Below are positions 6,646 to 24,311 of a DNA stretch of 64,000 nt, piece after piece. Numbering within the stretch: position 1 is the stretch's first letter; every line of letters starts with the position of its first letter. The position numbers and the translations under genes were made by a program. A model generated the notes under the pieces. It did no database searches and was not told the DNA's origin. It saw nothing but the letters and a program-made list of their open reading frames with translations. Where the stretch lies: assembly GCA_020850325.1 (NCBI GenBank), contig JADZEW010000001.1:62001-126000 (forward strand). Direction: 5' to 3'. This stretch comes from Methanoregulaceae archaeon. GTDB taxonomy: Bacteria > Armatimonadota > Fimbriimonadia > Fimbriimonadales > Fimbriimonadaceae.

Positions 6646-6693
6646 GGGCGGGGGATCCTTGTTCTTCACAGGTGATTTGACCTGCTCTGTAAG

Positions 6694-6723: not shown

Positions 6724-6738
6724 AAGGACTAGAAGATT

Positions 6739-7791
6739 CTATAGACCCTCGTCTGCGAAGCCATATACCGAGCAGAAGCAGTCTCGGATCAGCCCCGTGG
6801 GAACACTTGACTGACGGATCTCACCGTCTTCGTACACACACCGGATGGCTGTCGATCGAAGCAATCGGCCCGCGACAAGTTCCTCAATCGATCGCAATGC
6901 CCAACTGACGGCCATCATGTTGATGCTTCGGAGACTGCCTAGCCGACCACGCCCAAACTCGCGGCTTTCGTCTGCGATCTGCGCTGTTCTCCGATCGAGT
7001 CCCATCGTGCAAGCTAAGCACCGATCTCCGGGCAAGGAGACGGCGCCCTCAAAGCCGATCAAGGGCTCTTCAGCCGTCCCGAAAACGCCTGTCCCGATCG
7101 AGAGTGTTGGAACGAGGTAACGGCTGCCGATTGCGGCAATGGCTCGACGAGCTCGAGCAGAATCACACGCGGCGACGATAATGTCACAGTCAAGAAACTG
7201 GCTAAACGTGCTGAAGCCTTGGATGTCCCCTTGGATCGTTGTGACACGAACTTCTGGGTTGAGCTCACGGGCGAGCCGGCCGATCACGTCTACCTTTGGC
7301 CTTCCAAAGTCTATGAGTGCGATGGGTTCCGGCCACCGACTTGAATCTGTAGGCCCAAGGATGTCTGGGTCCGCCAGCACCAACTCACACACGCCCTCCA
7401 TAGCCAGGGCCGTTGCGAGATTCGAGCCTAGTCCTCCGACTCCGGCGATACCAACTCGCAGCCGACTCAGCTTCGACCAAGGAAGCAAGCCCAAACCTCC
7501 GGCTTGGCGGCTCCGCTCAACACCAACGAGAACAGGTTCAACTACCGTCCAATCAGGAACAAGAGCGATCTCACCGACCTCCGGACCATCCGGAAGCTGA
7601 ACCTTTAATGGCGCACCATCGCTGCCCAGCACAAAGTTTGCAGGCTGACCGTCCGCCGACGGCGTAAGGACAAGGAGGTCACCGAGCGGAGTGCGGGTGA
7701 CTCCCCGCCGCCACAAGGACGGCGGGGAGGTCAGGAACGACAAGGCGGGAACTCGAACTCGCATCGCAGTCATCTCAGTGCTGAGTGGCAA
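6739..7791 (-). CDS. ThiF/MoeB/E1-like adenylyltransferase family protein
   Basis: A 350-aa protein with a Rossmann-type E1 core. The glycine-rich loop GIAGVGGLGSNLATALA is followed by VLADPDILGPTDSSRW, the ATP-binding aspartates and arginine of the family. GDRCLACTMG gives one CxxC pair, and CFCSVYG near the C-terminus gives a second Cys pair, together suiting a structural zinc. About 100 N-terminal residues are not recognisable. Family members adenylate ubiquitin-like or small-molecule C-termini; no ubiquitin-like protein, E2 or JAB protease is seen nearby, so the substrate is unknown. The start overlaps the small gene upstream by 17 bp, showing an operon. Confidence 0.8.
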   Translation of the reverse strand: MPLSTEMTAMRVRVPALSFLTSPPSLWRRGVTRTPLGDLLVLTPSADGQPANFVLGSDGAPLKVQLPDGPEVGEIALVPDWTVVEPVLVGVERSRQAGGLGLLPWSKLSRLRVGIAGVGGLGSNLATALAMEGVCELVLADPDILGPTDSSRWPEPIALIDFGRPKVDVIGRLARELNPEVRVTTIQGDIQGFSTFSQFLDCDIIVAACDSARARRAIAAIGSRYLVPTLSIGTGVFGTAEEPLIGFEGAVSLPGDRCLACTMGLDRRTAQIADESREFGRGRLGSLRSINMMAVSWALRSIEELVAGRLLRSTAIRCVYEDGEIRQSSVPTGLIRDCFCSVYGFADEGL

Positions 7792-8385: not shown

Positions 8386-11300
8386 TCAAGTGCAACCCGT
8401 TCCCGCCGGCACGTATTCATAGATAAAGGGTCCCTCACCTTCCTTAAACACAGCAATGAGCCGCGACACTTCCTCTTCGGCAAGAACGACTGACGGCGCA
8501 CCAATCCAGTCAAGTACCACTGGCGCCTGATTCGAAGAAATACGCATTAGATACCCAAAGCTGGTATAGCACACCCCATTTAGGCTCAACTCCGGATACT
8601 CTCCAAAGCTACCCACGTTCGGAAGCTCGATTCTACCAGTCATCCGACCGCAACCGTCGAACACCGCAAGTTGTCCCTTGCTACTACCCACTGCAAGACT
8701 TCCGTCGTCCAGCACCATGCTAGAATTGATAACTCCTTCTAACTTTTTCTGCAAATGCCCTCTTTCACCGAGATCCATGGGCACGCCCATTGTGTCGAAT
8801 ATCGTTACACTGCCTTCCGAAGTCACAGATGCAACACGTCCAGCCTCAAGCGCAACAAGGCGTTGAAACAACTTGCAAGTTACACTCGGAGTTCTAGTCC
8901 TATTTGCATCAAACGGACTTCCACTCTGGTCGAACACTGCGACAACTCCCCTAGTTGTAGCAACAGCAAAACGGCCCTGTTCCAGATCGATCATCGAACA
9001 CACGCACCCTTCAACAATCGGCTCTTGCGTCCTCTTGGGCTCGACTGGGCTGCCACAGTTCTCAAAGACTGAGACCACTCCAAGGTCGGTCCCAACAGCA
9101 AACCGCTCTTGATTGATCGAGACAATCCTCGTAACCGTGCCCGCAACCCTCACTTCGCTTGCTGGCAGCCCAATAGGCTTTGCCAGTTGATCAAACACAT
9201 GAACGGAGCCTGAATCGGTAAGAATCACAAAGTGGCCCTGAGCCAGAGGACTTATCACAACAGGTCTCCCTGGGATGCTTGGATCGACAGTTTTGGATGC
9301 GTCCAATGGCAAACCATCTTTGCTAAAACCTGCAACAATGCCTTCATCTGTGCAAACAGCGAAGCACCCATTTTCAAGCGGTACTATCTTTACAACGCAT
9401 CCGACAACGCGCACCTCCCGGGATTCTGACCGTTGTAGCTGCGTGCCGTCATCTTGGAATACAGCAACAGCGCCTGTTTCCGTGCCAACTGCGAACAAGT
9501 TTGGACTGATTGGAGTCATTGACCAGATCATGCCATCTAAGCTCCTTCGATCAGACGGCACTGCTTTCTCTGACATCTTAGAGGTGTCAACCACAATGAC
9601 CATCCCCTCATCTGTGATTGCTACGACTCGCCCTAAATCTAGCGCCCCAAGCCACTGGACACCTCCTCTCACTCGCAATACTTGTTTTAGCTGGTAGTGG
9701 CTCGTCTCAGATTGACAATCGAACAACGCTACATCGCCAGATGTCGTTCCTACCACGAAGCGACGCTCGGAGATCAACTTAAGAGCCCAGATCCACCCGT
9801 CGCTTAAGTCCCAGTATCTTGTCTCATAGTTACTACCCTGTGCCCTGTTACATTTAAACACGGCGATTAGACCTAAGGAATCGCCAACTACAAAGTTCTC
9901 CTGATCGAGCAAATGTAGTTCTGATGGCCAATCACGCCAACTTGGATCTGTCGTCTTCGATTGATCAGTTGGAACTCCGTCGATATCAAAGACGGCCACC
10001 ACCCCGGAATCGGTACTAACGACGAAATGTTTCCCAGCGAGCGCAAGCATTGAACAGACCTTTCCAACAACACTTGTCGTATGCGTCTTAGCTGGATCAA
10101 CTGGTGCTCCGTCGATATCGAAGACCGCGACCACACCTTCATTCGTGCAAACGGCGAAGCGCCCATTCTCTAGCACGACGACTTCCCTGACCGCACCGTA
10201 TACACTCGCCACATGCGTCTTGGCAGTATCAACAGGCTCCCCGTCTCTATCGAAGACCGCTACGACTCCAGCATCCGTGCAAACGGCGAAGCGTCCGTTG
10301 TTGAGGGAGTTGCATTTTGGGAATGATCCTCTGACACTCACATCCTGCGTCTTAGCTTGATCAAGTGGTGCTCCGTTGTTATCGAAAACTGCCACCACGC
10401 CTTCATACGTACAGAGGACGAAGCGTTCGTTATCGATCAAGATGCATGTTGCGGGTGATCCGACAACACTCGCCTCCTGCGTCTTAGCTGGATCAACTGG
10501 TGCTCCGTCGCTATCGAAGACTGCAACCACACCTTCATTCGTACAAACTGCGAAGCGCCCATTCTCTAGCACGACGGCTTCTCTGACCGCACCGTATACA
10601 CTCGCCTCATGCGTCTTGGCAGTGTCAACAGGCTCCCCGTCTCTATCGAAGACCGCTACGACTCCAGCATCCGTGCAAACGGCGAAGCGTCCGTGAACGA
10701 GGGGTACTACAAGACCGACTTTTCCTCTTACACTCGTTTCTTGAGTCTTTGTGTAGTCAACTGGCAATCCATTGTTGTCGAATACAGCCACTACACCCGC
10801 ATCAGTGGCAACGATGAAGAAACCATGATCTAAGATAGAAAAGCAGGATGCTTCCCCTTTACATAACGCTGTGACGCGGTATTGCGGATGTGCGACTGTC
10901 CGCTCTCCACGCCGTATGACCCGTTCTTCTCTTCGAAACTCCAGCCGGCGGCGGGCCGATACAGAAACAGGCAATAGGCCGGCGTGGTTTGCGGCAAGGA
11001 TCAGTGGGCTCACGCCAACCAGCCGATGCTCAGCTGTAGCATCCAGCCAGTCGCACAATGTCTCAACTTCCTCGATTAGAGCCGCATCGGTGCTCAGGGC
11101 TCTCAGGTGCTGCATGAGCACAATGAGGTTCCGGCGTGCTCCCGATACAACAACTTCATGAACCCACCCCGACCAGAAGTCGGCGTCACCAATGATGACC
11201 CGAATCGCGTCTTGCGCCTTGGCCAAGAGAGGACAGGCCCTGTTGGGATCGACATTCATCAGACTTTGAATGTGCTCAAGGTGTCTAAGAACATGGTCCA

Positions 11301-13443
11301 TGAGGTAGCGCGCATCGTAGCGATCGACCCCGACGGCATCTTCCCAGCGATAGTGTTCATCGTTGGCTCGCTTCTGGATGTGCTTGTTCGCCTTTTCAAG
11401 CACGCACGCCTCGATGGCCGAGATCTGCTCTTGGAGACCCTCGACTTGTTCGAACGCCTCTCGAAGGGCGGGATGGCCCAGGTCGTAGACCACGGAGCGC
11501 GCCCGGGCATCGCTCTGGGTTCCAGGGTCGAGACTCAAGTCCGAAGCTCGGGTTTCCAGCACCCACCGCTGAACGGGCTCGCCTGCCTTCGCCAATGGAC
11601 CTGGTTTGAGGTTTCTTGGCAGGCGGTCCAGCCATGCCTGGTCGATCGCGCCCCGAGCCGCGACGATAGCTGGAATCCACTTCCAGCCAGCCGTTCGCTT
11701 CATTGACCGCCATTCAGCGCGGACGAGGTCAACGAGGCTCTTGGGCAAGTCCTCAACCCGCTCAAGCAGCGACCGGGACGGCTCAGTAGCGGTCTGAAGT
11801 TGGCCGAGCAAGCGGTCGGTGAAGAGCGGATAACCTTCCGTTCGGTCCCACAAAGCTTGAGTGACTGCGCCGAGTTCCACTTCGGGAAGCTCTGCGTGCT
11901 CTAGCGCTGACCCAATCCAGTGATCAAACGGGGGACGCGCGAGGTTCGCAAGCGAGTAGTAGTGGCAAGGACGCGGGTGGGAATTGGGACCCACGATGGG
12001 GACAATCGGCAGTCGCTCAGCAACCTGGGAACCTGTTCCCCGCACGCCCAGAAGCACGGTGACTTGCTTCGATATCTCCCAAGTCCAGATACCTTGAGGA
12101 TCCACGGACGCCTCGTCCACGCCGTCGATGACGACCACGATCCGCTTGCCTTCATAATCGCGGACGAAGTCTCTGAGCGTTGTAGACTCCTCGCCAATCC
12201 CCTCAGCATGGAGCTGCGCGAGAAGAGCCTGATGGATACGATCCCAATCAGAAGTGGCCGGCTCGCGCTGACTAATGTTGAAGCGAGCGACGGCAGCGTC
12301 GCCCCAGTCGTGGTTCACGAGTTCACCGATGAAGCTGGACTTGCCGACACCTGCTGGGCCGTGAACGACGATAAGCCCACCCGACCCCTGCTCGCGCACG
12401 AGGCATTGGACGTTTTCGACATCCTCTTCTCGACCAAACACCTTTCGGCAGCGTCCCGCTTGCACACGCAAAGAGGATTTGTAGGCAGCCTCGATCTGGG
12501 GGTCAGTGCTGAGAACCGGAGGCGGCACTGGATTCGTCGCTAACCTCCACGCCTCATCACGCGAACTGAACAGCTTGCACTTCTTGGTGTCAACGTTGTC
12601 GGGAAGCCGGTCGGCGAGGTAGTGCCTGGCCATTATGCCCTGTGACCAATCCGTAAATGCTTCGTGCTTAGCAGTTACCTCTGCGACCGACTCGGTCTCT
12701 CCCTTTACGATCGCCCCAGTTGCGCAAACAGTATGTAGGTCAGCGGGATGATGTTCATAGAAAGCGCGAAATGCGAGAAAGGCTGCCACCCCGACCGAAG
12801 GTCCATCCACCCACGCCGTTGCATCGGGAAAATGATCGGGTTTCCATACACTCTCCAGCGACCAAGCAACTCCTTCAGGTCCTGCGTCTCCGAGCGGCTT
12901 TGCAGCTTGACATGCTTCCTTGAGTGCTTCAAGAAAGCTTCGGCCGACATGGGTGCTCAGCAATGAGTGAGGGTTGTCGGGATGGTTGACTAATGGAGCC
13001 ATCACCACGACACCGGGAGTATCGGGCAGTGCGTAGAGTTTGAGCCGGAGGATTGCCGCCTGTGAGTTTGCGAACACGACCGGAAAGTGAATACTGACGC
13101 TTGGACGCTGAATTTGGTCGGTCAGAGCCGCCAACCACGCTGATTTTCGGGCGACGGGTTCGTCCCCAAGCTGTACGGGGAGATCGACCTTCTCCGCCAA
13201 AGCGGCCGCGAGTGTCACCGCTCTGGCCTCAGCTTCGATATCGACAGGCAGGCTCTGTCTTGCGTTCAAGACTTGGTAGGCACGCTCACTCGCCAACGAA
13301 ATGCAATGCTGCAACCAAGGGTAGTTCCCATGTTGCCCAAGAGGCACGTCAAAGCCAAACATCGGCAACTTGACCAGATTTTCCAGGGTCTGTCCACCCT
13401 CGACGGGCGCCAGCACTTTCTCAAGCCACTCTTTCGGCCTCAT
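8386..13443 (-). CDS. Lon-like domain - STAND NTPase - beta-propeller giant protein (1685 aa)
   Basis: A likely conflict/defence receptor. N-terminal residues ~200-265 resemble the Lon S16 protease domain: DGPSVG (candidate Ser ~216), then CATGAIV and SVAEVTAKHEAF (candidate Lys ~259), at the spacing seen in Lon. A STAND/NACHT-type NTPase follows, with Walker A VVHGPAGVGKSS (~362-370) and Walker B RIVVVIDGVDE. A helical region leads into about 17-19 propeller repeats of ~42 aa (GRFAVCTDAGVVAVFDRDG type) that fill the C-terminal half. The ATG at 13443 is chosen because MRPKEWLEKVLAPVEGGQT aligns with the start of the 420-aa paralogue, and the upstream bases match too. By analogy with STAND sensors, the propeller should bind a trigger and the Lon-like domain should cut a target. 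Activity is inferred. Confidence 0.8.
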   Translation of the reverse strand: MRPKEWLEKVLAPVEGGQTLENLVKLPMFGFDVPLGQHGNYPWLQHCISLASERAYQVLNARQSLPVDIEAEARAVTLAAALAEKVDLPVQLGDEPVARKSAWLAALTDQIQRPSVSIHFPVVFANSQAAILRLKLYALPDTPGVVVMAPLVNHPDNPHSLLSTHVGRSFLEALKEACQAAKPLGDAGPEGVAWSLESVWKPDHFPDATAWVDGPSVGVAAFLAFRAFYEHHPADLHTVCATGAIVKGETESVAEVTAKHEAFTDWSQGIMARHYLADRLPDNVDTKKCKLFSSRDEAWRLATNPVPPPVLSTDPQIEAAYKSSLRVQAGRCRKVFGREEDVENVQCLVREQGSGGLIVVHGPAGVGKSSFIGELVNHDWGDAAVARFNISQREPATSDWDRIHQALLAQLHAEGIGEESTTLRDFVRDYEGKRIVVVIDGVDEASVDPQGIWTWEISKQVTVLLGVRGTGSQVAERLPIVPIVGPNSHPRPCHYYSLANLARPPFDHWIGSALEHAELPEVELGAVTQALWDRTEGYPLFTDRLLGQLQTATEPSRSLLERVEDLPKSLVDLVRAEWRSMKRTAGWKWIPAIVAARGAIDQAWLDRLPRNLKPGPLAKAGEPVQRWVLETRASDLSLDPGTQSDARARSVVYDLGHPALREAFEQVEGLQEQISAIEACVLEKANKHIQKRANDEHYRWEDAVGVDRYDARYLMDHVLRHLEHIQSLMNVDPNRACPLLAKAQDAIRVIIGDADFWSGWVHEVVVSGARRNLIVLMQHLRALSTDAALIEEVETLCDWLDATAEHRLVGVSPLILAANHAGLLPVSVSARRRLEFRREERVIRRGERTVAHPQYRVTALCKGEASCFSILDHGFFIVATDAGVVAVFDNNGLPVDYTKTQETSVRGKVGLVVPLVHGRFAVCTDAGVVAVFDRDGEPVDTAKTHEASVYGAVREAVVLENGRFAVCTNEGVVAVFDSDGAPVDPAKTQEASVVGSPATCILIDNERFVLCTYEGVVAVFDNNGAPLDQAKTQDVSVRGSFPKCNSLNNGRFAVCTDAGVVAVFDRDGEPVDTAKTHVASVYGAVREVVVLENGRFAVCTNEGVVAVFDIDGAPVDPAKTHTTSVVGKVCSMLALAGKHFVVSTDSGVVAVFDIDGVPTDQSKTTDPSWRDWPSELHLLDQENFVVGDSLGLIAVFKCNRAQGSNYETRYWDLSDGWIWALKLISERRFVVGTTSGDVALFDCQSETSHYQLKQVLRVRGGVQWLGALDLGRVVAITDEGMVIVVDTSKMSEKAVPSDRRSLDGMIWSMTPISPNLFAVGTETGAVAVFQDDGTQLQRSESREVRVVGCVVKIVPLENGCFAVCTDEGIVAGFSKDGLPLDASKTVDPSIPGRPVVISPLAQGHFVILTDSGSVHVFDQLAKPIGLPASEVRVAGTVTRIVSINQERFAVGTDLGVVSVFENCGSPVEPKRTQEPIVEGCVCSMIDLEQGRFAVATTRGVVAVFDQSGSPFDANRTRTPSVTCKLFQRLVALEAGRVASVTSEGSVTIFDTMGVPMDLGERGHLQKKLEGVINSSMVLDDGSLAVGSSKGQLAVFDGCGRMTGRIELPNVGSFGEYPELSLNGVCYTSFGYLMRISSNQAPVVLDWIGAPSVVLAEEEVSRLIAVFKEGEGPFIYEYVPAGTGCT
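10084..10693 (-). repeat. Recent 214-bp tandem-type duplication inside the propeller
   Basis: Bases 10084-10297 and 10480-10693 are nearly identical, with about nine differences by eye. They are offset by 396 bp, which is exactly 132 codons, so whole propeller blades were copied in frame. Neighbouring blades differ much more, so this is a recent amplification or conversion. Confidence 0.8.
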
Positions 13444-13529
13444 CTTTGATGCCCTTTCTACCAGAATATCCGCCGCCCCGGAGAGCCATTCCAAGCACAC
13501 TCACCCACAACTGGGCATCGTTTCGCATG

Positions 13530-13742
13530 CTCCCCGCCTTGTTCAATCATCGCGACGACTCCCTGACTGGTTCCAACTGGAAAGCATTGCCGTGACTGCA
13601 CCGTACGCGCTAGGCATGTACACTGGCTTTGAGGCAGAGGCTTGCCTCGAGCGACAAACACCCCGACGATTCTGTGGCTCGACCCAACCGCGGAGCCATC
13701 GCCAAACGGAACCATGGTCCCGACCCAACCTTCCACGCTAGG
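13530..13742 (-). pseudogene. Decayed propeller blades following the 420-aa protein
   Basis: Directly after the TAG at 13743-13745 the same frame continues PSVEGWVGTMVPFGDG, an exact propeller-blade opening. Another frame then gives PSAYGAVTAML, the next blade opening, and GTSQGVVAMI. So at least two further blades exist here, broken by a nonsense codon and a frameshift. They are the lost C-terminus of the 420-aa protein. Confidence 0.75.
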
Positions 13743-15005
13743 CTATTCCGTTTGGTCCTGCGCCAAATGCTGGTGATCGGCACCAAACGCCTCGACGAGT
13801 CCCTCACTGGTCCCAATCGCGAAGCCACCGCCAAGCGCGACCATTGAGGTGACCTCACCATGCAGGCGACACATGCTTCCCGCCAAAGGCTGGCCAACTT
13901 TTCCAAACGCCTCAACGTATCCCTCACTGGTCCCAATCGCGAAGCCATCGGCAATCGCCACCATTGAGGTGACCCAACTTTCTACGCTGGGTTCGTGCGT
14001 TTTGGCACCAGGCAGCGGCTGACCATCAGCACTAAACAGCGCGACGACACCATGGCTCGTTCCAACAGCAAAGCTATCGCCCAGTGGTAGCATCGCCGTG
14101 ACCCAACCTTCCACGCTGGGTGTATGCGTTTTGGCACCAGGGACCGGCCGGCCATCGGCACCAAACAACACGACGATTCCCTCGGTTGTACCAACCACAA
14201 ATCCACTGCCAAACGGGCGCATCGCGTTGACCGCACCGTACACGCTACCCTCGTACGTTTGGCTTGTCGGCAAGGGCTGCCCATCAGCACCAAACAGCGC
14301 GACGACACCATGGCTCGTTCCAACAGCAAAGCTATCGCCCAGTGGTAGCATCGCCGTTACCGCTCCTTCCACGCTGGGAGCGAGCGTGATGCTCCCTGCA
14401 AGAGGCTGGCCACCTGCACCAAACGACGCGACGATTCCCTCGCTTGTTCCTACCGCAAAGCCATCGCGAAACGGGATACTCGCCTTGACAATACCTCCAA
14501 CGGTATGTTCGTACGTATGACTTAACGGCTGACTGTTAGCACCGAACACAACGACGCCTCCATTGCTCACCGCCACCACGAACCCATCGCCAAACGGAAC
14601 CATCGCGTAGGCCCAACCTTTCACGCTGGGTTCATGGACTTGGCTTCCCGGCAGAGGCTGGCCATCAGATCCGAACGTCGCGACAACTCCCTTGCTTGTC
14701 CCAACGGCAAAACCGACGCCAAGAGGGATCATCGCGATGATCTCACCCTTCACAGCATCATGTCTTGATGAGGAAACCTCTTCGCCTTCGTCATCGAGAA
14801 TGCAGGTCTCACCCAGATCGGTCCCGACTGCACATCCGCCCCCTTTCAAGGTGACGAAATGCTTGACCCGACCTCGAAAAACCGCGGTCGTTCGATAACG
14901 CAGCACCAGGCGCTGGACGTTAGCCTCATCTGCCTCGCGACCAAACTCCGTCTGACCGCCCTCGACAGGCGCAAGCATTTTCTCGAGCCATTCCTTCTTC
15001 TTCAT
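13743..15005 (-). CDS. Beta-propeller protein, internally deleted paralogue of the STAND giant (420 aa)
   Basis: It starts KKKEWLEKMLAPVEGGQT, matching the giant protein's N-terminus. It then jumps straight to EFGREADEANVQRLV, which matches the giant's VFGREEDVENVQCLV just before the P-loop. The Lon-like domain and the NTPase are therefore missing, and the protein moves directly into about eight or nine ~42-aa propeller blades (GFAVGTSEGIVASFGAGGQP type). It ends at a TAG in the linker after QDQTE, while blade sequence continues in frame beyond. It could be a truncated decoy or sensor, or a decaying gene. It follows small protein B by 85 bp and probably shares its promoter. Confidence 0.7.
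   Translation of the reverse strand: MKKKEWLEKMLAPVEGGQTEFGREADEANVQRLVLRYRTTAVFRGRVKHFVTLKGGGCAVGTDLGETCILDDEGEEVSSSRHDAVKGEIIAMIPLGVGFAVGTSKGVVATFGSDGQPLPGSQVHEPSVKGWAYAMVPFGDGFVVAVSNGGVVVFGANSQPLSHTYEHTVGGIVKASIPFRDGFAVGTSEGIVASFGAGGQPLAGSITLAPSVEGAVTAMLPLGDSFAVGTSHGVVALFGADGQPLPTSQTYEGSVYGAVNAMRPFGSGFVVGTTEGIVVLFGADGRPVPGAKTHTPSVEGWVTAMLPLGDSFAVGTSHGVVALFSADGQPLPGAKTHEPSVESWVTSMVAIADGFAIGTSEGYVEAFGKVGQPLAGSMCRLHGEVTSMVALGGGFAIGTSEGLVEAFGADHQHLAQDQTE
14034..14357 (-). repeat. 66-bp identical direct repeat in the 420-aa propeller gene
   Basis: Bases 14034-14099 and 14292-14357 are identical as read here. They are offset by 258 bp (86 codons, two blades). Synonymous sites are identical too, so the copy is recent. 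Confidence 0.8.
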
Positions 15006-15090
15006 CTTTCATACCAACTCTACCGGTCCCCGCCACCCGAAGAGCGACGGGGGATACGATAGGCGGAGTGTTTCCAGCTCGGCAGGGCCG

Positions 15091-15366
15091 TCACACCTGA
15101 GCAGCCAATGTCGCGAGGCCCGTGGCGAACTCGCGCTTACTTACCATCGGATACTTCTTGCGCGAGACCAGGGCAAGCGTCATCGCACGATCCAACCAGA
15201 CATCGAACGACTTCTCCGACTGGGTGCACACTGCCGCGCACACCCAGTCGGCTCCAAACCGATCGACCAGTCTCTGCAGGATGCCCAAACGGTGGGCCTG
15301 CTTCGCCTCGAACACGCGACAGATCGATTCCCATCGCGCCTCACTAATTGTCTTCCTCTTCATCGA
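15091..15366 (-). CDS. Small conserved island protein, copy B (91 aa)
   Basis: A paralogue of copy A with blocks LQRLVDRFGADWVCAAVC, SFDVWLDRAMTLALVSR and FATGLATLAAQV. The start is set at the ATG 15366, where GGAGG lies about 6 nt upstream; the track start at 15423 is in the leader. It precedes the 420-aa propeller gene, and promoter motif copy 3 ends about 37 nt upstream. Function unknown. The repeated placement at the head of transcription units suggests an accessory or regulatory role. Confidence 0.75.
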   Translation of the reverse strand, partial: SMKRKTISEARWESICRVFEAKQAHRLGILQRLVDRFGADWVCAAVCTQSEKSFDVWLDRAMTLALVSRKKYPMVSKREFATGLATLAAQV

Positions 15367-15447: not shown

Positions 15448-15716
15448 TTACTGTACTTCGGCAACGCCTTCGAAGATGCAGGTCTCACCCCAAGAGACGC
15501 GGGCCGCACATCCGACCCTTTCAAGGCAACGAAGTGGTCAACCTGACTTCGAAGAACCGTCGTCATATGACAAGGTAGGCGATACACTTTGAGATTGGGC
15601 GGACAACTCGGGTCGCGCTCTCGTCGCCTTCCGCCCGTAGCGACTGGGCAATCCCGGTCGGTAACTACCGAACGGCCGCCCAGATTCACGGTAGACGACC
15701 TTGACGGAGCGAGCAT
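15448..15716 (-). pseudogene. Decayed head of another EWLEK/propeller paralogue
   Basis: One frame gives MLAPSRSS and later VDHFVALKG, matching MLAPVEGG and VKHFVTLKG of the 420-aa protein. After a frame change (about a 2-nt loss), GCAARVSWGETCIFEG matches GCAVGTDLGETCILDD. It then ends at TAA 15448-15450, before any blades. This is a third copy of the module, now broken, lying between CHAT protein 1 and small protein B. Confidence 0.65.
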
Positions 15717-15756: not shown

Positions 15757-18732
15757 TCACCTGGGGGCTACTAGTCTCGTCGCCCCATTTCCAATCACGG
15801 TGAAGGGCGCCCAGTAGTATGGCGATGTGAAGCGAGGATCGCTTGCGACGGCGCATCGACCGTGCCTAGCCGCGGAGGCGACCGTCTCCCCTTGGAGCAA
15901 CCGCAGGTGGAACTCTTTAGCGAAGAGGAGCGAGGACCCGTCGTTCGCCGGCCACAAGGAAGCAACTACGCACTCTGCGCCAGCGGCGAGGTATGCGTCC
16001 GCTGCACCAAAGGCGGCCCCTGATATGGGTGAATGCCTAACGGTATCACACCCGGTAAGGACCACAACCTTCGCTGTTAGCTCGGCCAAATATACCTCTT
16101 TCGTTAAGAGGAGGTTCGCATCAGCCGACCCATCTCCCAAAACCATATACGAGAGCAATGCGTTTCGGGCAAAGGAGTCGTCCTCATTCAGATGAAGGGT
16201 GCCCGCAGCCGCGTCGCGCGCGCGCTGGCTCGGGCGTAAGGACTCATGGGGGTAGACATGGTGAGTCGCGATGTGGATGATGTCTGCTCTCCCCATCTCC
16301 ATTCGAACTCTCCTCGTGCTCTGCTCTTGGTGCTGTAGATGAACACAAGATGGGTAAAGCGTCGCCACCTCCTCAGCTTCAAGGACGGCCGCGGGAAGCC
16401 GGTCGAGGTGATTGTACATCTCTCCGTGCCGGAACTTAGGGGATATTGCGCTAGGCCGGTAGTGACTAAAGTCAGAAACGCCTATAACAAGCGCCTTCGG
16501 CTCGGATAGCACCGGACGATCCTGTGGTGGCATGAGACCACCGGTTGTTAGATAGATGTCATGAATGAGACCAAGGGGCCCCCTTGCTCTGTCAGAAACG
16601 ACAATCTCCCAGTCATCGGAACATCTGCCGCTTTCCAACAAACTACCCTTGAGAATTGCATTGTAGGGAACATCGCACCAGCTGTCTTCGGGAACGATAA
16701 CTAATGCACTTTCGGGCTTAAGATCACGCAACTGGGGTCCGTCAGGAAGGAGGCGAGACTCGATTTGGGCGTTCCAGCTACGCCACCATCCGTCGATCGT
16801 CCGAAGGTCGTCGGCTGTCAGCGAGGACTGAGTGCGCAGAGCATAGTGCCAAGGGGACTCGATATGACGTCGGATGGTCTCTTGAGACTCATGCATCTCA
16901 GTGACCACTATTCTCGACTGCCCGCTCTGGTAGCGGTGAACCTCTGAATCTTTCGTAGAGATGTCCAGGACCAAGCTGCCCGGTTGACGGTTGGCGACCG
17001 CCTGCAGGGCAGAGGAGCGCCGGAGCGCGAGAATCGTCAACTTTCTCTCAAGGATGCCCATGGCCGTATCGTCGCCTGAATACACGTCAATTAGCGTTTC
17101 CAAGCACTCTTCGGCCCACCGCTTGAGGTACCCGTAAATCTCCAACTCTGCGGTGCCATGGTACCAGTGCTTGGAAAGCTGGGCTAGAGCACTTTCTATG
17201 GGGTCGGGCAGGTAAGCGCTCCTGAGCCAGCGCGCCATCTCAATCTCTATGGACTGAGCGAGCTCGATCCTACGAAGAGGGTTTCTCGTGACAGCCAATT
17301 GCATGATCCCAATCGTCACAATCCGCATGCAGCCATCCACCTGTTCATCCTCCGAGACAGAGGACCGCACGAGGAGCTGCTCAATGAGCGCGAGCAAAGA
17401 GAGATCTAAACCCATCCCCCCATTGCAGAGGGCATGGCGGGCGCGTTTAAGTCCATCCCGCTGGGCAGCCGTGAGTTCAGAGCCCTGACGCCTCAATCTC
17501 AGGGCCCGGAGCACCAGGCAATAGACGCCTTCAGGGCTAAAGCACTTGAGCGCAAAATCGAGCACGAAGATCTGTGTCTTGTGCCAGGAGTCGTCGTCCT
17601 CCTGCATTTGGCCGATCTCCCTCGTCAGCAGATGCTCAAAGGACCGAAAGAAACGGGCGACGGAAAAAGGAACGGAAACCTCGTCTGGCTCGAGACTCTC
17701 TTCTCCTTCGAACAGGGTGACAAGCCCGTATCTTCCGAGGAGGTCAAGGTTGGACAGGGCCTCCTCTTTAAGAAGCTGAATGGTCTGTGCATAAGCATGT
17801 TCGTCTTCAGCGCCTGGGACCCGTCCGAGCGCGAACAAGAACTGGTAGGTGTGCATCTCGTCTCCGACCGCAGCCGCCTGGAGCATGAATCGCAGGAACG
17901 TAGCCGTTTGCAGGGGTAGCTTCGATTCAAGCCTCGGGGCCTGCTCGTAAATGGGTAAGGAGAAGGGATCGAAGAGAAAGTGGCCAGTAGCTTCGATCTT
18001 CTCGCCGCCAGAGCGTTTCGCCAACAAGAGTTCGCGGCCGAAGGCTAACGCGTGCCGATTAACAGTAAGAAGCGACCACAAATGCTGGTGCGGCTTGAGG
18101 TGAGGCTTTAGGGCCTGGATCGGAAGTAGAGACGCCTTGATCAGTAACTTTCGATCTAACTCGGAGTCGGTGAGCCCCGCAATGCAAAGTCGATAGTAGA
18201 CCTCCTCGAACCGATAGACCTCTTGTTCGTCCAGAATGTCTGGCGAACTCCGAATGAGTTCGGCGAGATCCGAAAATGCTTGCGCAAGGTTATAGCCCGG
18301 TAAGAGACCGTGTCGACCAAGAATCGCGGAGAGCAGAACATCGCCCGGCGAAGTTGTGAGAGTTTTGTAACCCACGGAAGGCATGAGAAGTAGCCCTCCT
18401 GATAAAACTGGATCCTGCAAGACAGGGCGCGTGATATCTGGGTCACCGGACGAGGAGAGGAGCCATGCACCGAATGCGATTGAGTTGTGCCGGATCGACT
18501 CACACTTTGACATAGTTTCGCGCGTAATGAATGTGCGGAAGAACTCAGCCTCGTCGTGGCTCTCGGGAAGCACAACACTTAATAGGCTCGACAGATTTAC
18601 GATCCGATCAAAAAGGTCCGGATCCGACATTGGGTCGAACATATGCGCGGCGCAGAGTACGTTGAAGAATGCCCCACTTGTTGGGTTATTGTTATTGGGA
18701 GGTGGGTTATGCATGGACATCAACGTTGTCAA
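15757..18732 (-). CDS. CHAT-domain protein 1 (candidate cysteine protease, 991 aa)
   Basis: The C-terminal ~280 residues form a CHAT (caspase-HetF) domain: the beta strand LVIGVSDFSHY, the catalytic His in ADIIHIATHH, the catalytic Cys in VVVLTGCDT, and the closing ECVVASLWPANDGSS. The first ~650 residues are helical without clear TPR consensus and probably sense or scaffold. It shares the PGDVLL and WSLLTVNRH blocks with CHAT protein 2 (18742-21636), 10 bp upstream, so it is a tandem paralogue in the same operon. The track start is a TTG; ATGs at 18720 and 18714 are alternatives. It may process another island protein, such as the 442-aa partner of the sigma factor. Both catalytic residues are present. 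Confidence 0.85.
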   Translation of the reverse strand: MTTLMSMHNPPPNNNNPTSGAFFNVLCAAHMFDPMSDPDLFDRIVNLSSLLSVVLPESHDEAEFFRTFITRETMSKCESIRHNSIAFGAWLLSSSGDPDITRPVLQDPVLSGGLLLMPSVGYKTLTTSPGDVLLSAILGRHGLLPGYNLAQAFSDLAELIRSSPDILDEQEVYRFEEVYYRLCIAGLTDSELDRKLLIKASLLPIQALKPHLKPHQHLWSLLTVNRHALAFGRELLLAKRSGGEKIEATGHFLFDPFSLPIYEQAPRLESKLPLQTATFLRFMLQAAAVGDEMHTYQFLFALGRVPGAEDEHAYAQTIQLLKEEALSNLDLLGRYGLVTLFEGEESLEPDEVSVPFSVARFFRSFEHLLTREIGQMQEDDDSWHKTQIFVLDFALKCFSPEGVYCLVLRALRLRRQGSELTAAQRDGLKRARHALCNGGMGLDLSLLALIEQLLVRSSVSEDEQVDGCMRIVTIGIMQLAVTRNPLRRIELAQSIEIEMARWLRSAYLPDPIESALAQLSKHWYHGTAELEIYGYLKRWAEECLETLIDVYSGDDTAMGILERKLTILALRRSSALQAVANRQPGSLVLDISTKDSEVHRYQSGQSRIVVTEMHESQETIRRHIESPWHYALRTQSSLTADDLRTIDGWWRSWNAQIESRLLPDGPQLRDLKPESALVIVPEDSWCDVPYNAILKGSLLESGRCSDDWEIVVSDRARGPLGLIHDIYLTTGGLMPPQDRPVLSEPKALVIGVSDFSHYRPSAISPKFRHGEMYNHLDRLPAAVLEAEEVATLYPSCVHLQHQEQSTRRVRMEMGRADIIHIATHHVYPHESLRPSQRARDAAAGTLHLNEDDSFARNALLSYMVLGDGSADANLLLTKEVYLAELTAKVVVLTGCDTVRHSPISGAAFGAADAYLAAGAECVVASLWPANDGSSLLFAKEFHLRLLQGETVASAARHGRCAVASDPRFTSPYYWAPFTVIGNGATRLVAPR

Positions 18733-18741: not shown

Positions 18742-21636
18742 TCAGGATCCCCCTGCGACCAGGCGCGCCATCCCCTTTCCGACAACCGAAAACGGAGCCC
18801 AGTAGTAGGGAGAGCGAAACCGGGGATCGCCGGCGACAGCCTGACGACCAAACCTGGCGGCCCGCGCTACTGTCATGCCCGAAAGGAGGCAGCAGTGGAA
18901 CTCTGTCATGAAGATGAAGGCCGCCTCATCATGGATGGGCCAAAGAGTTGCTACGACGCACTCGGCCCCCGCTGAAAGGTAAGCCCCAGCGGCGGCCAAA
19001 GGTGCCCCATGAACAAACGTCGTCTGGAACGTGCTGCAACCAGACAGCACGACAACCTTCGCCTTCAACTGAGCGAGGTGTACCTCCTTCGTCAAGAGTA
19101 GGTTCAGCCCACCGTCGCGGTCTTCAGCAAAGACCGTGTAGCTGTGGTGCGACAATTGGGCCCTTGCCTCGCCTGCCACAAAGGTCCAGCTCGTGCGGTC
19201 CTGACATCTGCGGTCGCCGAGCCGAATGCCACTCGGCTGTTCATGGTGACTCGCGAAGTGAATGATATCCGCCAACGGCAACTCCATTCGGATGCGTCGG
19301 ATCGTTTGCTCTTGCGGCCGGAGATGGACCGCGCCGTCTCCATAGATTTTTGCAACCCATTCCGCCTCCGCCTCGGCTAGCGGTAGGGGTTGAAGACGGT
19401 CCTCGGGCGGGCGATGCCACAGCATAGGGTCAATCGTGTCGGGGCTCATGTGGGAAAAGTCCGAGACGCCTGCGACAAGCGCCCGTATGGCGGACTCGAC
19501 CGGCGGACTAGGCTCGAGGTCGAATCCTCCCGGTGAGAGGTACAAGTCACGCGAAAGCCCGAGGGCCTCTCCCGTCTCCAAGTCGCGCAGCGCGTTGTAG
19601 GGAACGTCCCACCACTCTTTCTCCGGGGCGACCACGAGGTTCCCTCCTTGCGGCACTAGCTGATGCAGAGCAGTGTCCGGGCAGAGGTATTTACACACCC
19701 TCTGGCCCCACAGGTCCCACCAACCGTCTGGCGCCTTGAGGTCCTCTGGACCCAGGGCGCTTGATCCAACCATCGCGTGCTGCCACGGCGAGTAGATCTC
19801 CGCAGCTACCTCGGGCGATCTCCCGGGGAACCCAAACATCTGCACGTCGGTGGCGGTCACATAACGATGCATGGCTTCGCCAGTTGGGCAAAGATCGAGC
19901 AGGACAGAGCCCTTGTGGCGTTGCACCAATGTTCGCAGGGCAAGGCTCCGTTGGTGCGTCAGCTTGAGGATTTCTGATCGGAGCTGAATCGCCTCCCCTG
20001 GCACCATAGGCTCGCTCCTCAGGTAAGGCAGGACGCTCTCTACGAAAGAGCGTAGCGTCCGGACGAGCCGCTCATCTCCGATCATGAGCCCCCAGTTTTT
20101 AGCTAACTGCTGCAGAAACTGCTTGGTTCCTGGATGCGCGGACATGGTGACCACCCAGTTTTGGAGCGCCTGTTCGACTTCGACCGCGTGCTCGACCTGA
20201 GTAAGGCGGTTCCGAGACAGCGCAAACCGGGCGAGGCGGAGAACCAGGATCCGCATCCATTGGGCCTGTTTCGTCTCAGGATCTGTCTCATCGAGCGTCA
20301 GGAGGAGCTCAAGGTAATCCGCGGCCGCAAGGTCCCACATTCTCAGTCTATGAATCTCCTGGGACTGCGATCGCTGCAAAAGCTGGGCCTGCGCCTCGCC
20401 AATCGGACTACCCTCAAGACGTCCTTTCGTCACCCGAATAAGCTGATCATAAAGACTGTCTTTTTCATTTAGAAGCGCTCGTTCCAAAGTGTCCAGGACA
20501 AGGAGTGCCCGTGCCCTTTGCCTTGGCTGCCATGTCTCCTGTTCTCGGTGAGGAAGGGCCAGTGTCCGCTTCGCCTCACGGAAAAGGCGAATCAAACCGA
20601 ACATGGAAGAGATTCGACCCGGCGGCAACTCACGCTCCACGTCGAAGGTCGGGGTCAAGCCCCAAGTTCCAATAGTGGTGCACCACATCGATGCTTCGAA
20701 GGTGAGCATTTCGACTATCTCAGTTCCGGCGGGGCTGCTCATGTCCGGACTGTAGCCTTTGGCCATGCTCCTCAACTGCCGAAACAACAGCTCATCCCCA
20801 GATCCTGCGGCCCGGACCATGAGCATCACCATTCTAGCGACTCCGCGATCGACTCCAGCGGTGGCCAAATGTTCCTCAAAATAGGGGTGCCATCGACAAT
20901 AGGGGTCGAAGACATACTCTGGCTGCGCATAGACCCGGCCGCCCTCCCCATCCGACACGGCGACGGGTAGGGGCGCCCTGACGAGAAGAGAGCGATGGAT
21001 CGTAAGGAGCGACCAGATCTTTTGGTGAGAGGTGATCTCCGGACGCAGAGCGTCCAGAACAAGACCGGACGCATCCACCGATGCTGGCCACCGATCAGGA
21101 GCCTCATCTATCGCGGCGTCACAAAGTTTCTGAAACACCAACTCAAGGCGGTCGATGTCACGGATGTCAGGGTAGTCCGGAAACTTGGTCACGAACTCCC
21201 TCAGCTCAATGAATGCGTCCTCCGACGAAAAGTCGACTAGTCCGGACTGGCCTGCGATCGCAGCGAGGAGAACGTCACCGGGGGAAGCCTGAAGAAGGCC
21301 AGCACTTACGGGTGGCATCTCATGCTGCGTACCCTGCATCATCTCGGCACTTAGCAGCGCCGCCACAAGATCATCACAGTCACCCCTGACAATCTCTTGC
21401 GTGATCTCGATGGTAAGTCTCCGCAACGGGTCAGCCAAGTGCTTCTTGCTCCGAAGCGCCTCAAACGCACTCGCGTCGCCCTGCGTTTCCGGTACCAATC
21501 CTCCTATTAGGGTTAAGAGATTGACTGCGCGCGCGAGGACGGCAGGGTCACTCGTCGCCATGACAGGACCCAGCACAGCCTTAACCAATGGGTTCCGCTT
21601 CATGACGCGAAGTAAGCTCTCTTCCACTGGAATCAC
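18742..21636 (-). CDS. CHAT-domain protein 2 (candidate cysteine protease, 964 aa)
   Basis: A paralogue of CHAT protein 1. The CHAT domain is at the C-terminus, with LVAGVSDFSHMS, the His in ADIIHFASHH, the Cys in VVVLSGCST, and ECVVATLWPIHDEA. The N-terminal two thirds are helical and share PGDVLLAAIAGQSG and KIWSLLTIHRS with its partner. The start is a GTG overlapping the stop of the ~105-aa gene (GTGA), showing tight coupling. Two CHAT paralogues could form a heterodimer or have separate targets. CHAT proteases are known effectors or initiators in bacterial conflict systems, including craspase; the trigger here is unknown. Confidence 0.85.
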   Translation of the reverse strand: MIPVEESLLRVMKRNPLVKAVLGPVMATSDPAVLARAVNLLTLIGGLVPETQGDASAFEALRSKKHLADPLRRLTIEITQEIVRGDCDDLVAALLSAEMMQGTQHEMPPVSAGLLQASPGDVLLAAIAGQSGLVDFSSEDAFIELREFVTKFPDYPDIRDIDRLELVFQKLCDAAIDEAPDRWPASVDASGLVLDALRPEITSHQKIWSLLTIHRSLLVRAPLPVAVSDGEGGRVYAQPEYVFDPYCRWHPYFEEHLATAGVDRGVARMVMLMVRAAGSGDELLFRQLRSMAKGYSPDMSSPAGTEIVEMLTFEASMWCTTIGTWGLTPTFDVERELPPGRISSMFGLIRLFREAKRTLALPHREQETWQPRQRARALLVLDTLERALLNEKDSLYDQLIRVTKGRLEGSPIGEAQAQLLQRSQSQEIHRLRMWDLAAADYLELLLTLDETDPETKQAQWMRILVLRLARFALSRNRLTQVEHAVEVEQALQNWVVTMSAHPGTKQFLQQLAKNWGLMIGDERLVRTLRSFVESVLPYLRSEPMVPGEAIQLRSEILKLTHQRSLALRTLVQRHKGSVLLDLCPTGEAMHRYVTATDVQMFGFPGRSPEVAAEIYSPWQHAMVGSSALGPEDLKAPDGWWDLWGQRVCKYLCPDTALHQLVPQGGNLVVAPEKEWWDVPYNALRDLETGEALGLSRDLYLSPGGFDLEPSPPVESAIRALVAGVSDFSHMSPDTIDPMLWHRPPEDRLQPLPLAEAEAEWVAKIYGDGAVHLRPQEQTIRRIRMELPLADIIHFASHHEQPSGIRLGDRRCQDRTSWTFVAGEARAQLSHHSYTVFAEDRDGGLNLLLTKEVHLAQLKAKVVVLSGCSTFQTTFVHGAPLAAAGAYLSAGAECVVATLWPIHDEAAFIFMTEFHCCLLSGMTVARAARFGRQAVAGDPRFRSPYYWAPFSVVGKGMARLVAGGS

Positions 21637-21950
21637 TCTGTCGATTCGGTCAGGAGGCGGTGGACCAGCCGCAAACGCTCCCTTAGGCTTTGTACTGACT
21701 CATCCAGTCCCGCAAAGTCCCCTAGCCGCCTGTCGACAGCTACCTGGACACTCACAAGCGCCCACTCGGGCAGGACCAACTTAGCGCAGATCTTAGAGAG
21801 CGCTTCCTTGAACTCTTGCTCCGCGTGGCTCGCGCCGCGCGAGGCACTCTCGCCGTTTGCCACTTGGTTTGCGTGGAGGAGTGTTACAAGGCTATCGATC
21901 TCCTCTTCCATGCACGCGATTTCTTTCAAGACGTCGGGGTTAATAGCCAA
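21633..21950 (-). CDS. Small helical protein in the sigma-CHAT operon (~105 aa)
   Basis: Not recognised. It has two predicted helical segments rich in E and L (VLKEIACMEEEIDSLVTLL and SLRERLRLVHRLLTES) around a central hydrophobic block. The track start is GTG 21959 with AAGGAG only 1 nt away; a TTG at 21950 has better spacing and is used here. It overlaps the genes on both sides, so its dosage is tied to the 442-aa protein and CHAT protein 2. A coiled-coil adaptor between them is a reasonable guess. Confidence 0.6.
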   Translation of the reverse strand: MAINPDVLKEIACMEEEIDSLVTLLHANQVANGESASRGASHAEQEFKEALSKICAKLVLPEWALVSVQVAVDRRLGDFAGLDESVQSLRERLRLVHRLLTESTE

Positions 21951-23268
21951 TGAACACACTCCTTAAGGTCTTAACATCTTGTATGAAGTCCAATAGCTCG
22001 AAGTTCGCCCCTTGTGCGGACTGTGCCCGGCTCATTAACAGATCACCCGCGGGTAGATCGCCGAGCCGCCAAGCTAAGCACGCGCCTACGGCGTCACAGA
22101 AGATCTGCGCAGGAGGGAACTTGAGAGCTACCTTATCGCTGAGCGCCCGGGCCCGAATGTATGATCGCTCTGCCGCGCCCAGATCGCCTGCCCGAAGGGC
22201 GGCAAGGCTGTCGGTGGCGAGGAGCCAAGCGGCCAGATCGACCTGCCCTGGCTCTAGCTTGGCCAGCAAGCGCGACAGCTCGTCCCGGACGTGGCTGAGA
22301 GCGGTCATCGCACCAAGCAACTTGCAGATTGCCCTCGCTTCTCCAATCGCGGGACGAGGATCCTTAGCCCACAGGAACGGAACCCCGATCTGGGGCACAG
22401 CCGTAGCTCTCATCCCACCGCGTTGTGCATGCCCGGCAAAAGCAGCACCCGAGGCCTCGATCGCAGCAAGAATCCCGGGGGCGATTATCTCGAGCAACAC
22501 ATCGACTGGGATCGGTGGTGTGCCCGCGAACTCCTCCGCAACGCCGCTAAGCTCCGTCTCCTCATACTGATCTACATAGTACTCGTGGCCCGGTTGAACC
22601 CCAAATCCCACGACGACTGATTCGCCGGTAACGTGAACGGATACCTCGTCAACCTCTTTGCCTTCACACTCGACCTTGACAACCGTGCCAGCATCTGCTC
22701 GAAACGTCAGTTCAAGGTACCAACCCGTGGCTTCTGCAAAAACGTCAGAATGTTGGAGCCGTCCATGGTCGATCACAATGCCAATCGAACCCAAACCGAG
22801 CTTGCCTTCGAGACCAATCTCCATTGCTTGCGAGTCCTTGGCCGCCGCAGCAGCAGCAGCACCCATGGGAATAGGTTGCGCCAGGCGCGACACGAGCTCA
22901 CCGATTCCGAGTTGAAGGCAGTAAGTTGCGTAGACGACAAACCCGTGCCAGTTTTTCAGATAACGGGCGAGTCTCTTCTGGTCATCGGCGCCGAGAGAAG
23001 GAGCCAAAGCTAAGGACGCCTGCAAACCAGCTTCAGCTGCAGATGTGAGCCTAACGTAATCTTCGGGGAGTGGATCGAGGTCAACCCCTTCGAGATTCGC
23101 GATTCGCTCGACGAGCTGATCGTCCATGATCTCGTTGATGACTTCAACCAGGAACGGATCGTCGCCCTTCATGTAGGCCCGAAGATCGTCGTCACTCACC
23201 TCATTCATAAGGTGAATCGTCTTTTGGACCTTCAGTTCTTGTTCATTAGTTAGTTTGATGTGCTTCAC
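21940..23268 (-). CDS. Partner protein of the ECF sigma factor, 442 aa, unknown (candidate anti-sigma or CHAT substrate)
   Basis: No family recognised. The first ~130 residues are acidic and helical (LTNEQELKVQKTIHLMNEVS). A flexible Ala-rich linker (MGAAAAAAAKDS) follows, then a beta-rich domain (~150-245). A helical C-terminus looks TPR-like (LAALRAGDLGAAERSYIRAR and ACLAWRLGDLPAGDLL). No transmembrane helix. The GTG start overlaps the sigma gene stop (GTGA), the usual place for a sigma regulator. The exposed linker would suit proteolysis. By gene order it corresponds to Csx30 between CHAT and RpoE in craspase loci, but no sequence similarity is claimed. Confidence 0.6.
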   Translation of the reverse strand: MKHIKLTNEQELKVQKTIHLMNEVSDDDLRAYMKGDDPFLVEVINEIMDDQLVERIANLEGVDLDPLPEDYVRLTSAAEAGLQASLALAPSLGADDQKRLARYLKNWHGFVVYATYCLQLGIGELVSRLAQPIPMGAAAAAAAKDSQAMEIGLEGKLGLGSIGIVIDHGRLQHSDVFAEATGWYLELTFRADAGTVVKVECEGKEVDEVSVHVTGESVVVGFGVQPGHEYYVDQYEETELSGVAEEFAGTPPIPVDVLLEIIAPGILAAIEASGAAFAGHAQRGGMRATAVPQIGVPFLWAKDPRPAIGEARAICKLLGAMTALSHVRDELSRLLAKLEPGQVDLAAWLLATDSLAALRAGDLGAAERSYIRARALSDKVALKFPPAQIFCDAVGACLAWRLGDLPAGDLLMSRAQSAQGANFELLDFIQDVKTLRSVFIGY

Positions 23269-24311
23269 TTGCTGTTCCTCTTTCCGCCCTTGAAACTATG
23301 AGAGACATCTGTCCGCTTTACCTTGATTCGAGCCTGTGAGACCATTTTTTTGACAGTCGGTTGAGGTCGACTCAAAATTGTCGACGCTTCCACAAGACTG
23401 AGTCCTACAACCTCAACCAATACCCAAGCCCGAAACTGGGGCTTGTTCTCGATCGCTCTGCGCGCATGCCGAACCTTGACTCGTGCCTTAGCAGACGCAT
23501 GTTGAACGATTCGCGCCCGATCAGACGTACGTTCAACGCCTCCAAACGGACGATCCACCCATAACTCTCCAATAGACTCCACTCCAAACGCTACTTCCTC
23601 ACCCAGCCGTCTCTGTACGTTGTCCGGAAGTCCCTGCAAGCTGTTCAAAGCCCAAGCGCTGAACTCGAACTTCTGTTCCATTGCGGCACGTATCTTCTGG
23701 CGAGCGCGATGCAACCAGGACTTTATAGTCCCCTTGTCGCGGTTCAACTTGATTGCGGCCTCATGTTCAGTGAGGTCCTCGACATCGCGAAGCACCCAGA
23801 CGGCGAACTCAGGGGGCGTAAGAACCCGCTCGGCCGTAGCGACGATTGCGCAAACTTGATCCTGCGTTTCCAAATCTGCGAACAGATTCAGCGACTCTGA
23901 GTCTGCTATCTCAGGCGCACCCTCGTCTTCGATCGAACGCGTCGGCATGCGTCCGGGGGCAGCATCTTGGTCCACTTTGTGCCACCAACCCAACCGATCG
24001 TCCCACTCGAACGACCCCTTCAATCTTGGTTTGGACTTGCGACACTTGTTTCTCGCGATCGCAAACACCCACGTCGAGAACTTGTAAGCGGGATCGAACC
24101 GCTTCAAGAATTGGAACGCTGCGACCTTCGTTTCTTGATAAGCGTCCTCCGCGTCAACCACATTTTCCATGGAACGGCAGCAGAACCTGTAGGTTTGTTT
24201 GTCCACCGTACTCCACAATGTGTCAAACGCTGGTCGATCCCCCTTCTGGGCGCTAATGACGAGTGCTTGGACAGTTACTGGGTCAAGTCCGCCTGCTTGC
24301 TGATCGATCAT
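23265..24311 (-). CDS. ECF-type RNA polymerase sigma factor with a second sigma4-like domain (348 aa)
   Basis: Region 2 is clear: DAEDAYQETKVAAFQFLKRFDP, then KFSTWVFAIARNKCRK, which binds the -10 and core polymerase. Region 4 is LTPPEFAVWVLRDVEDLTEHEAAIKLNRDKGTIKSWLHRARQKI, which reads the -35. At 348 aa the protein is nearly twice the normal ECF length. The extra C-terminus holds a second similar helix-turn-helix, FRAWVLVEVVGLSLVEASTILSRPQPTVKKMVSQAR. RBS GGAGGAAGG precedes the ATG. It heads the operon with the 442-aa protein, the small protein and both CHAT genes. It is the obvious candidate reader of the GTAAACC-N15-nnGAAY sites nearby. Confidence 0.85.
   Translation of the reverse strand: MIDQQAGGLDPVTVQALVISAQKGDRPAFDTLWSTVDKQTYRFCCRSMENVVDAEDAYQETKVAAFQFLKRFDPAYKFSTWVFAIARNKCRKSKPRLKGSFEWDDRLGWWHKVDQDAAPGRMPTRSIEDEGAPEIADSESLNLFADLETQDQVCAIVATAERVLTPPEFAVWVLRDVEDLTEHEAAIKLNRDKGTIKSWLHRARQKIRAAMEQKFEFSAWALNSLQGLPDNVQRRLGEEVAFGVESIGELWVDRPFGGVERTSDRARIVQHASAKARVKVRHARRAIENKPQFRAWVLVEVVGLSLVEASTILSRPQPTVKKMVSQARIKVKRTDVSHSFKGGKRNSK

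What the first reader, a model, noticed from the sequence alone, without database searches (positions are those of the whole stretch)
8386..13443. Giant receptor combining a Lon-like S16 domain, STAND NTPase and a very long beta-propeller
The N-terminus has the Lon-type Ser motif (GPSVG) and, at the expected distance, TGAI followed by a Lys in VTAKHEA. A P-loop NTPase and about 17-19 near-identical blades follow. STAND proteins with C-terminal repeat sensors are known defence receptors (Avs-type and NACHT-type). A Lon-type protease as the N-terminal effector with a propeller sensor, next to CHAT proteases, would be an unusual architecture.
Basis: partly seen in the sequence, partly recalled or inferred. 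Interest (0 to 1): 0.7.

Follow-up and report, generated by a model that had tools for sequence, protein, structure and literature searches.

The report
Immune-receptor-like protein with Lon-type protease head
A bacterial defence island carries a 1,685-residue NOD-like (STAND) receptor whose head most likely is a Lon-type protease with an intact catalytic pair and whose tail is two sensor propellers, beside wrecked copies of itself; this head-tail pairing was not found in the genomes and papers searched.

Summary
Observation largely confirmed. ORF 8386-13443(-) is an intact 1,685-aa protein. Residues 204-309 align with a divergent Lon/S16 profile (hhalign score 39.1, P 1.5e-5; best of 150 shuffles 19.4, best of about 130 unrelated segments 21.1). 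Ser216 and Lys259 fall on the Lon Ser and Lys columns, 43 residues apart as in Lon. The signal sits in about 60 residues around the active site, Pfam Lon_C does not hit, and the single-sequence fold failed (pLDDT 38), so "S16 homologue" is likely, not proven. A STAND-type NTPase (P-loop 362-370) and about 17 blades follow. The blade region matches tandem double-propeller structures including Apaf-1, so it is probably two propellers. The blades are not near-identical (median 30%); only six are recent. New: the gene upstream is a gutted paralogue (N-terminal tag, stub, 8 blades, in-frame stop, decaying blades) and a third relic lies further upstream, so receptor copies turn over here. The neighbourhood is a real defence island (two CHAT proteases, sigma factor, type I R-M, PtuAB-like, Mrr) beside mobile-element genes. 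Best reading: an Apaf-1/NLR-like receptor that fires a Lon-type protease on oligomerising. No relative found. A new variant of a known kind.

The parts
8386..13443 (-). Receptor A, 1,685 aa, intact: N-terminal tag, helical region, S16-like domain, STAND-type NTPase, C-terminal blades
   Evidence: open frame and domain hits
13387..13443 (-). 19-aa N-terminal tag shared with ORF B (residues 1-19)
   Evidence: 16 of 19 residues identical, 8 synonymous v 3 non-synonymous codon differences
12478..13128 (-). S16-like domain as searched, residues 106-322 (aligned part 204-309 = 12517-12834; Ser216 codon 12796-12798, Lys259 codon 12667-12669)
   Evidence: hhalign score 39.1, P 1.5e-5, controls at most 21.1; catalytic columns; core-only signal
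12106..12444 (-). STAND-type NTPase core, residues 334-446 (P-loop 12334-12360, Walker B 12109-12138)
   Evidence: Pfam AAA_16, AAA_22, NB-ARC over cut-off; NLRP7 NACHT E 0.003; motifs
8389..10881 (-). About 17 blades of ~44 aa plus end pieces, probably two tandem propellers (residues ~855-1685)
   Evidence: model pLDDT 66 with Foldseek E 1e-16 to 1e-20 to double-propeller chains
10006..10797 (-). Recent tandem duplication of a three-blade unit (blades 1-3 = 10402-10797, blades 4-6 = 10006-10401)
   Evidence: 88 of 396 bases differ; blade 2 v 5 95% identical in protein
13743..15005 (-). ORF B, gutted paralogue: tag, first 14 aa of the NTPase region, 8 blades; lacks S16 and NTPase; ends at an in-frame TAG inside a blade
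13500..13742 (-). Decaying blades continuing ORF B after its stop
   Evidence: tblastn E 2e-15 to ORF B, same frame;
15456..15559 (-). Third relic, 73% identical in DNA to the start of the B propeller
   Evidence: blastn E 5e-13
15757..18732 (-). CHAT protease 2 (991 aa); neighbour, membership in the system unproven
   Evidence: PF12770 E 1.5e-29; His and Cys motifs
18742..21636 (-). CHAT protease 1 (964 aa), 35% identical to CHAT 2
   Evidence: PF12770 E 7.7e-31; motifs
21940..23268 (-). 442-aa orphan overlapping the sigma-factor gene
   Evidence: no Pfam, NCBIfam or PDB match; unique among 291 genomes
23265..24311 (-). ECF-type sigma factor (348 aa)

Best explanation
Receptor A is an Apaf-1/NLR-like STAND sensor of a bacterial defence island. 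Its C-terminal propellers recognise an infection-related ligand (inferred). The NTPase then exchanges nucleotide and oligomerises (inferred from family). Clustering switches on the N-terminal S16 domain, a Ser216-Lys259 protease of Lon type, which cleaves a protein target (inferred); by analogy, host proteins for growth arrest, or partners such as the neighbouring CHAT proteases or the sigma/442-aa pair. Shown here: domain order, active-site homology to S16 with both catalytic residues, intact P-loop, propeller fold at moderate model confidence, defence-island setting, local duplication and decay of receptor copies. Not shown: proteolysis, oligomerisation, ligand, target, phage protection.
For: S16 profile score 39.1 v at most 21.1 in controls; Ser and Lys on the catalytic columns, unlike ComM- and RadA-like rows; STAND-type NTPase over Pfam cut-offs with intact motifs; propeller matches include Apaf-1 and Nostoc-type repetitive propeller 2ymu; paralogue decay and blade amplification as described for immune STAND propellers (PMC9218822); type I R-M, PtuAB-like, Mrr and CHAT neighbours; precedent for an oligomerisation-activated Lon domain in CalpL (PMC11417357).
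Against: Pfam Lon_C does not hit. The S16 signal is lost when the motifs are masked and residues 106-203 show none. AF2 without homologues failed. No relative was found, so conservation of the dyad cannot be tested. No functional data.
Confidence: 0.62

Rival explanations
1. The N-terminal domain is an S16-fold homologue without protease activity, acting as an oligomerisation or docking module as in ComM, RadA or BrxL; the CHAT proteases are the real effectors.
For: Many S16 homologues lack the dyad; BrxL carries a Lon domain without the dyad (PMC12839542); CHAT proteases with intact motifs are next door.
Against: Ser216 and Lys259 are both kept at the right spacing, which dyad-less relatives do not do.
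Confidence: 0.15
2. The N-terminal domain is not S16 at all; the GPSVG/TGAI/Lys match is convergence.
For: Signal concentrated in about 60 residues; no structural model.
Against: No shuffle or unrelated segment comes near the score; the alignment runs on to the end of the domain in the same register even with motifs masked.
Confidence: 0.13
3. The receptor is a housekeeping or developmental signalling STAND regulator, for example of the sigma/442-aa/CHAT cluster, not phage defence.
For: ECF sigma factor and orphan in the same strand cluster.
Against: Unique to this genome in the phylum, in a defence island beside mobile-element genes with copy turnover.
Confidence: 0.1
4. The whole receptor cluster is decaying and the intact ORF A has no current function.
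For: Two wrecked copies within 2.5 kb; GC3 of the blade part (0.50) is lower than in the NTPase part (0.65).
Against: ORF A is open for 1,685 codons with intact P-loop and catalytic pair.
Confidence: 0.06

Closest known systems
Apaf-1 (STAND NTPase with two C-terminal WD40 propellers)
   Same: STAND-type NTPase followed by a region that matches Apaf-1 among other double-propeller chains (3shf, E 6e-17).
   Different: N-terminus is S16-like instead of CARD; ~17 blades v 15 (own knowledge); bacterial.
WRAP-type bacterial STAND receptors with amplified propellers (Nostoc Npun_R6612)
   Same: STAND NTPase plus recently amplified blades, with disrupted copies nearby (PMC9218822).
   Different: Effectors coupled there are TIR or caspase; blade identity here is far lower (median 30%).
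CalpL (CRISPR-associated SAVED-Lon protease)
   Same: Lon-type Ser-Lys protease as an immune effector at the N-terminus, activated by oligomerisation (PMC11417357); a sigma factor nearby.
   Different: No SAVED domain detected; STAND NTPase and propellers instead of a cyclic-nucleotide sensor.
Avs / bNACHT antiphage STAND proteins
   Same: Tripartite effector-NTPase-sensor plan (PMC12169576).
   Different: Only a weak Avs2 match in the P-loop region (PADLOC E 0.022); propeller sensor and S16-like effector.
Craspase module (Csx29 TPR-CHAT, Csx30, sigma factor)
   Same: CHAT proteases next to an ECF sigma factor and a protein of unknown function (PMC10028731).
   Different: No sequence match of CHAT 1 or the 442-aa protein to any solved structure; CRISPR not examined.

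Membership tests
Peptidase S16 (Lon) superfamily | Catalytic Ser in a GPSxG-like context and Lys 43 residues on | tested here: met
   Ser216/Lys259 on the catalytic columns
Peptidase S16 (Lon) superfamily | Significant profile similarity | tested here: met
   custom diverse S16 profile: P 1.5e-5, controls far below; motif-driven
Peptidase S16 (Lon) superfamily | Curated Pfam Lon_C model above cut-off | tested here: not met
   Lon_C is absent from the listed Pfam matches (25 best of 26 up to E 1) of the receptor and its own-genome search finds only Lon and a ComM-like gene; so not a member of the Lon_C family as curated, only a remote superfamily relative
Peptidase S16 (Lon) superfamily | S16 fold | tested here: inconclusive
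   AF2 pLDDT 38 without homologues
Peptidase S16 (Lon) superfamily | Proteolytic activity | not testable with these tools
   needs biochemistry
STAND NTPase (NACHT/NB-ARC-like) | P-loop and Walker B in a STAND-type AAA+ core | tested here: met
   exact STAND clade not resolved (NACHT and nSTAND1 below cut-off)
STAND NTPase (NACHT/NB-ARC-like) | Ligand-driven oligomerisation | not testable with these tools
   needs biochemistry
WRAP-type highly symmetric propellers | Median blade identity above 60% (criterion of PMC9218822) | tested here: not met
   30% in receptor A, 54% in ORF B
Avs1-4 | Match to an Avs family model over the full length | tested here: not met
   only Avs2, E 0.022, P-loop region
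CalpL | SAVED domain fused to Lon | tested here: not met
   no SAVED match in the Pfam or PADLOC scans of the receptor

The most novel reading that the evidence does not exclude
A class of bacterial NLR/Apaf-1-like receptors in which a directly fused Lon-type Ser-Lys protease is the effector, wired to neighbouring CHAT proteases and a sigma factor as a CRISPR-independent protease cascade.
Probability: 0.2. Interest if true: 0.72.

Novelty: new variant of a known kind. Interest (0 to 1): 0.52.

Why it matters
Protease effectors of STAND receptors are usually described as caspase-, CHAT- or trypsin-like (own knowledge and the papers read). A Lon-type effector would add a catalytic class and, with CalpL, would show that S16 has been used more than once as an oligomerisation-triggered immune protease. 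The locus also catches receptor turnover in the act: a fresh three-blade duplication in the intact copy, a gutted sister copy and a third relic.

Tried and rejected
Relatives of the N-terminus or N-terminus plus NTPase: order (113 genomes), phylum (291 genomes; only generic NTPase hits), plasmids, phages (one chance hit), IMG/VR, GTDB species contigs, 327 genomes of another phylum (two chance-level hits). The pattern-based scans see only close relatives, so absence is weak evidence. Blade family: found only in this genome among 291; the GTDB blade scan gave two unrelated matches. Narrow Lon-only profiles gave weak scores; divergent S16 domains had to be added, a choice made after seeing the weak first result, which is why the shuffles and unrelated segments were run against the final profile. 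AF2 of 1-330 alone failed and its Foldseek matches were discarded. I did not thread the domain on an S16 alignment in AF2: it would be circular, and those loci came from a tool not on the predictor's allowed list. Papers: no S16/Lon STAND effector in the papers read or surfaced by the searches; the library is incomplete and the main Avs paper is not held.

Full report
The object. The minus-strand ORF 8386-13443 encodes 1,685 aa without interruption. The ATG at 13443 is preferred over the GTG at 13500 because the sequence that follows it, MRPKEWLEKVLAPVEGGQT, matches the start of the upstream ORF B, 16 of 19 residues, with 8 synonymous and 3 non-synonymous codon differences.

The N-terminal domain. 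Standard libraries do not recognise it. A first comparison with Lon domains alone was weak (P 0.0036, Ser aligned). I then built a diverse S16 alignment from genomes of the same phylum: Lon, ComM- and RadA-like proteins, and LonB-like or secreted S16 proteins. Residues 106-322 score 39.1 (P 1.5e-5, probability 79%). The best of 150 shuffles scores 19.4 and the best of about 130 unrelated segments of the window scores 21.1 (two overlapping pieces of the domain itself score 40.1 and 38.5). Using only catalytic S16 rows gives 38.8. Ser216 (DGPSVG) and Lys259 (AKHEA) fall on the catalytic columns; the six rows without the dyad, among them ComM- and RadA-like ones, lack that Lys. The spacing of 43 equals that of Lon.

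Limits of that evidence. The profile was broadened after the first weak result. The score comes from roughly 60 residues around the active site. Masking the motifs leaves the register unchanged but the score insignificant, and residues 106-203 carry no detectable signal. AF2 without homologues failed (pLDDT 38) and Foldseek on it gave noise. Its secondary-structure order (three strands, helix, strand, Ser216 before a helix, two short strands, Lys259 at a helix end) agrees with an S16 domain, but that is soft evidence. I put S16 homology at about 0.85 and catalytic competence, given homology, at about 0.8.

The middle and the tail. Residues 334-446 hold a STAND-type NTPase (Pfam AAA_16 and NB-ARC above cut-off; best PDB sequence match the NLRP7 NACHT, E 0.003), with intact P-loop 362-370 and Walker B 436-445. 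From about residue 855 come ~17 blades of ~44 aa. They are not near-identical: median identity 30%, with a recent tandem duplication of a three-blade unit (blades 1-3 and 4-6, 78% at DNA level; blade 2 v 5 95% in protein). An AF2 model with a two-row alignment (pLDDT 66, pTM 0.45) matches 1,827 PDB chains at E<=0.001. Many of the best matches carry two propellers in tandem, among them Utp21, Gemin5 and Apaf-1, and the highly repetitive propeller 2ymu is also listed (which chains have two propellers is partly own knowledge; TM-scores are low, so blade arrangement is not fixed by this model). Two propellers are likelier than one.

ORF B (13743-15005) is a gutted sister: the same 19-residue tag, the first 14 residues of the NTPase region, then 8 blades aligned with the start of the receptor propeller. 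It stops at an in-frame TAG in the middle of a blade; the following bases continue the blade in the same frame and then decay. A third fragment, 15456-15559, is 73% identical to the start of the B propeller. The locus has thus held at least three receptor copies. The same mix of amplified and disrupted propellers has been described for STAND proteins and read as fast turnover under an immune role (PMC9218822).

Setting. Upstream on the same strand lie an ECF-type sigma factor overlapping a 442-aa orphan, a 108-aa ORF, and two related CHAT proteases with intact His and Cys motifs. Beyond them, on the plus strand, are HsdR, HsdM and HsdS with PtuA- and PtuB-like genes, and, on the minus strand, an Mrr endonuclease. 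Downstream are ThiF, AAA and VirD4/TraG-like genes, a serine recombinase and a D5-type primase. It is a defence island next to mobile-element genes.

Distribution. Neither the N-terminus nor the blade type was found elsewhere in 291 genomes of the phylum; the N-terminus was not found in plasmids, viral contigs, GTDB contigs or 327 genomes of another phylum beyond two chance-level matches. These searches reach close to moderate relatives only.

Mechanism. The most likely reading, partly by family analogy, is a tripartite receptor: propellers sense, the NTPase oligomerises, and the S16 domain is activated by clustering and cleaves a target. CalpL shows that a Lon domain can be run this way (PMC11417357), and Csx29/Csx30/sigma shows that a TPR-CHAT protease can act on a sigma-factor inhibitor (PMC10028731). 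Whether the sigma/442-aa/CHAT cluster belongs to the same system is open.

Verdict. It is a new variant of a known kind (propeller STAND receptor), with an effector class I found no description of in the literature available here.

Noticed in passing
window 15757-24311 (-): ECF-type sigma factor, a 442-aa orphan overlapping it by 4 bases, a 108-aa ORF and two CHAT proteases in a row resemble a CRISPR-free counterpart of the Csx29/Csx30/sigma module; the orphan would be the candidate sigma-factor partner or substrate.
   Followed up: partly
window 26391-36323: Type I restriction-modification genes hsdR, hsdM, hsdS with PtuA- and PtuB-like (Septu-type) genes directly behind hsdS, and an Mrr endonuclease next to them.
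   Followed up: partly
window 1-7791: Mobile-element genes: D5-type primase, serine recombinase, VirD4/TraG-like ATPase, AAA ATPase, ThiF-family protein.
   Followed up: partly
window 15006-15430 (-): A short ORF of about 90 aa (MKRKTISEARWES...) with no Pfam match lies between the third relic and ORF B.
   Followed up: no
window 13387-13443 and 14949-15005 (-): The 19-aa N-terminal tag differs between intact receptor and gutted copy mostly by synonymous changes, so the tag itself may have had a role (docking or adaptor peptide); no third copy in the genome.
   Followed up: partly
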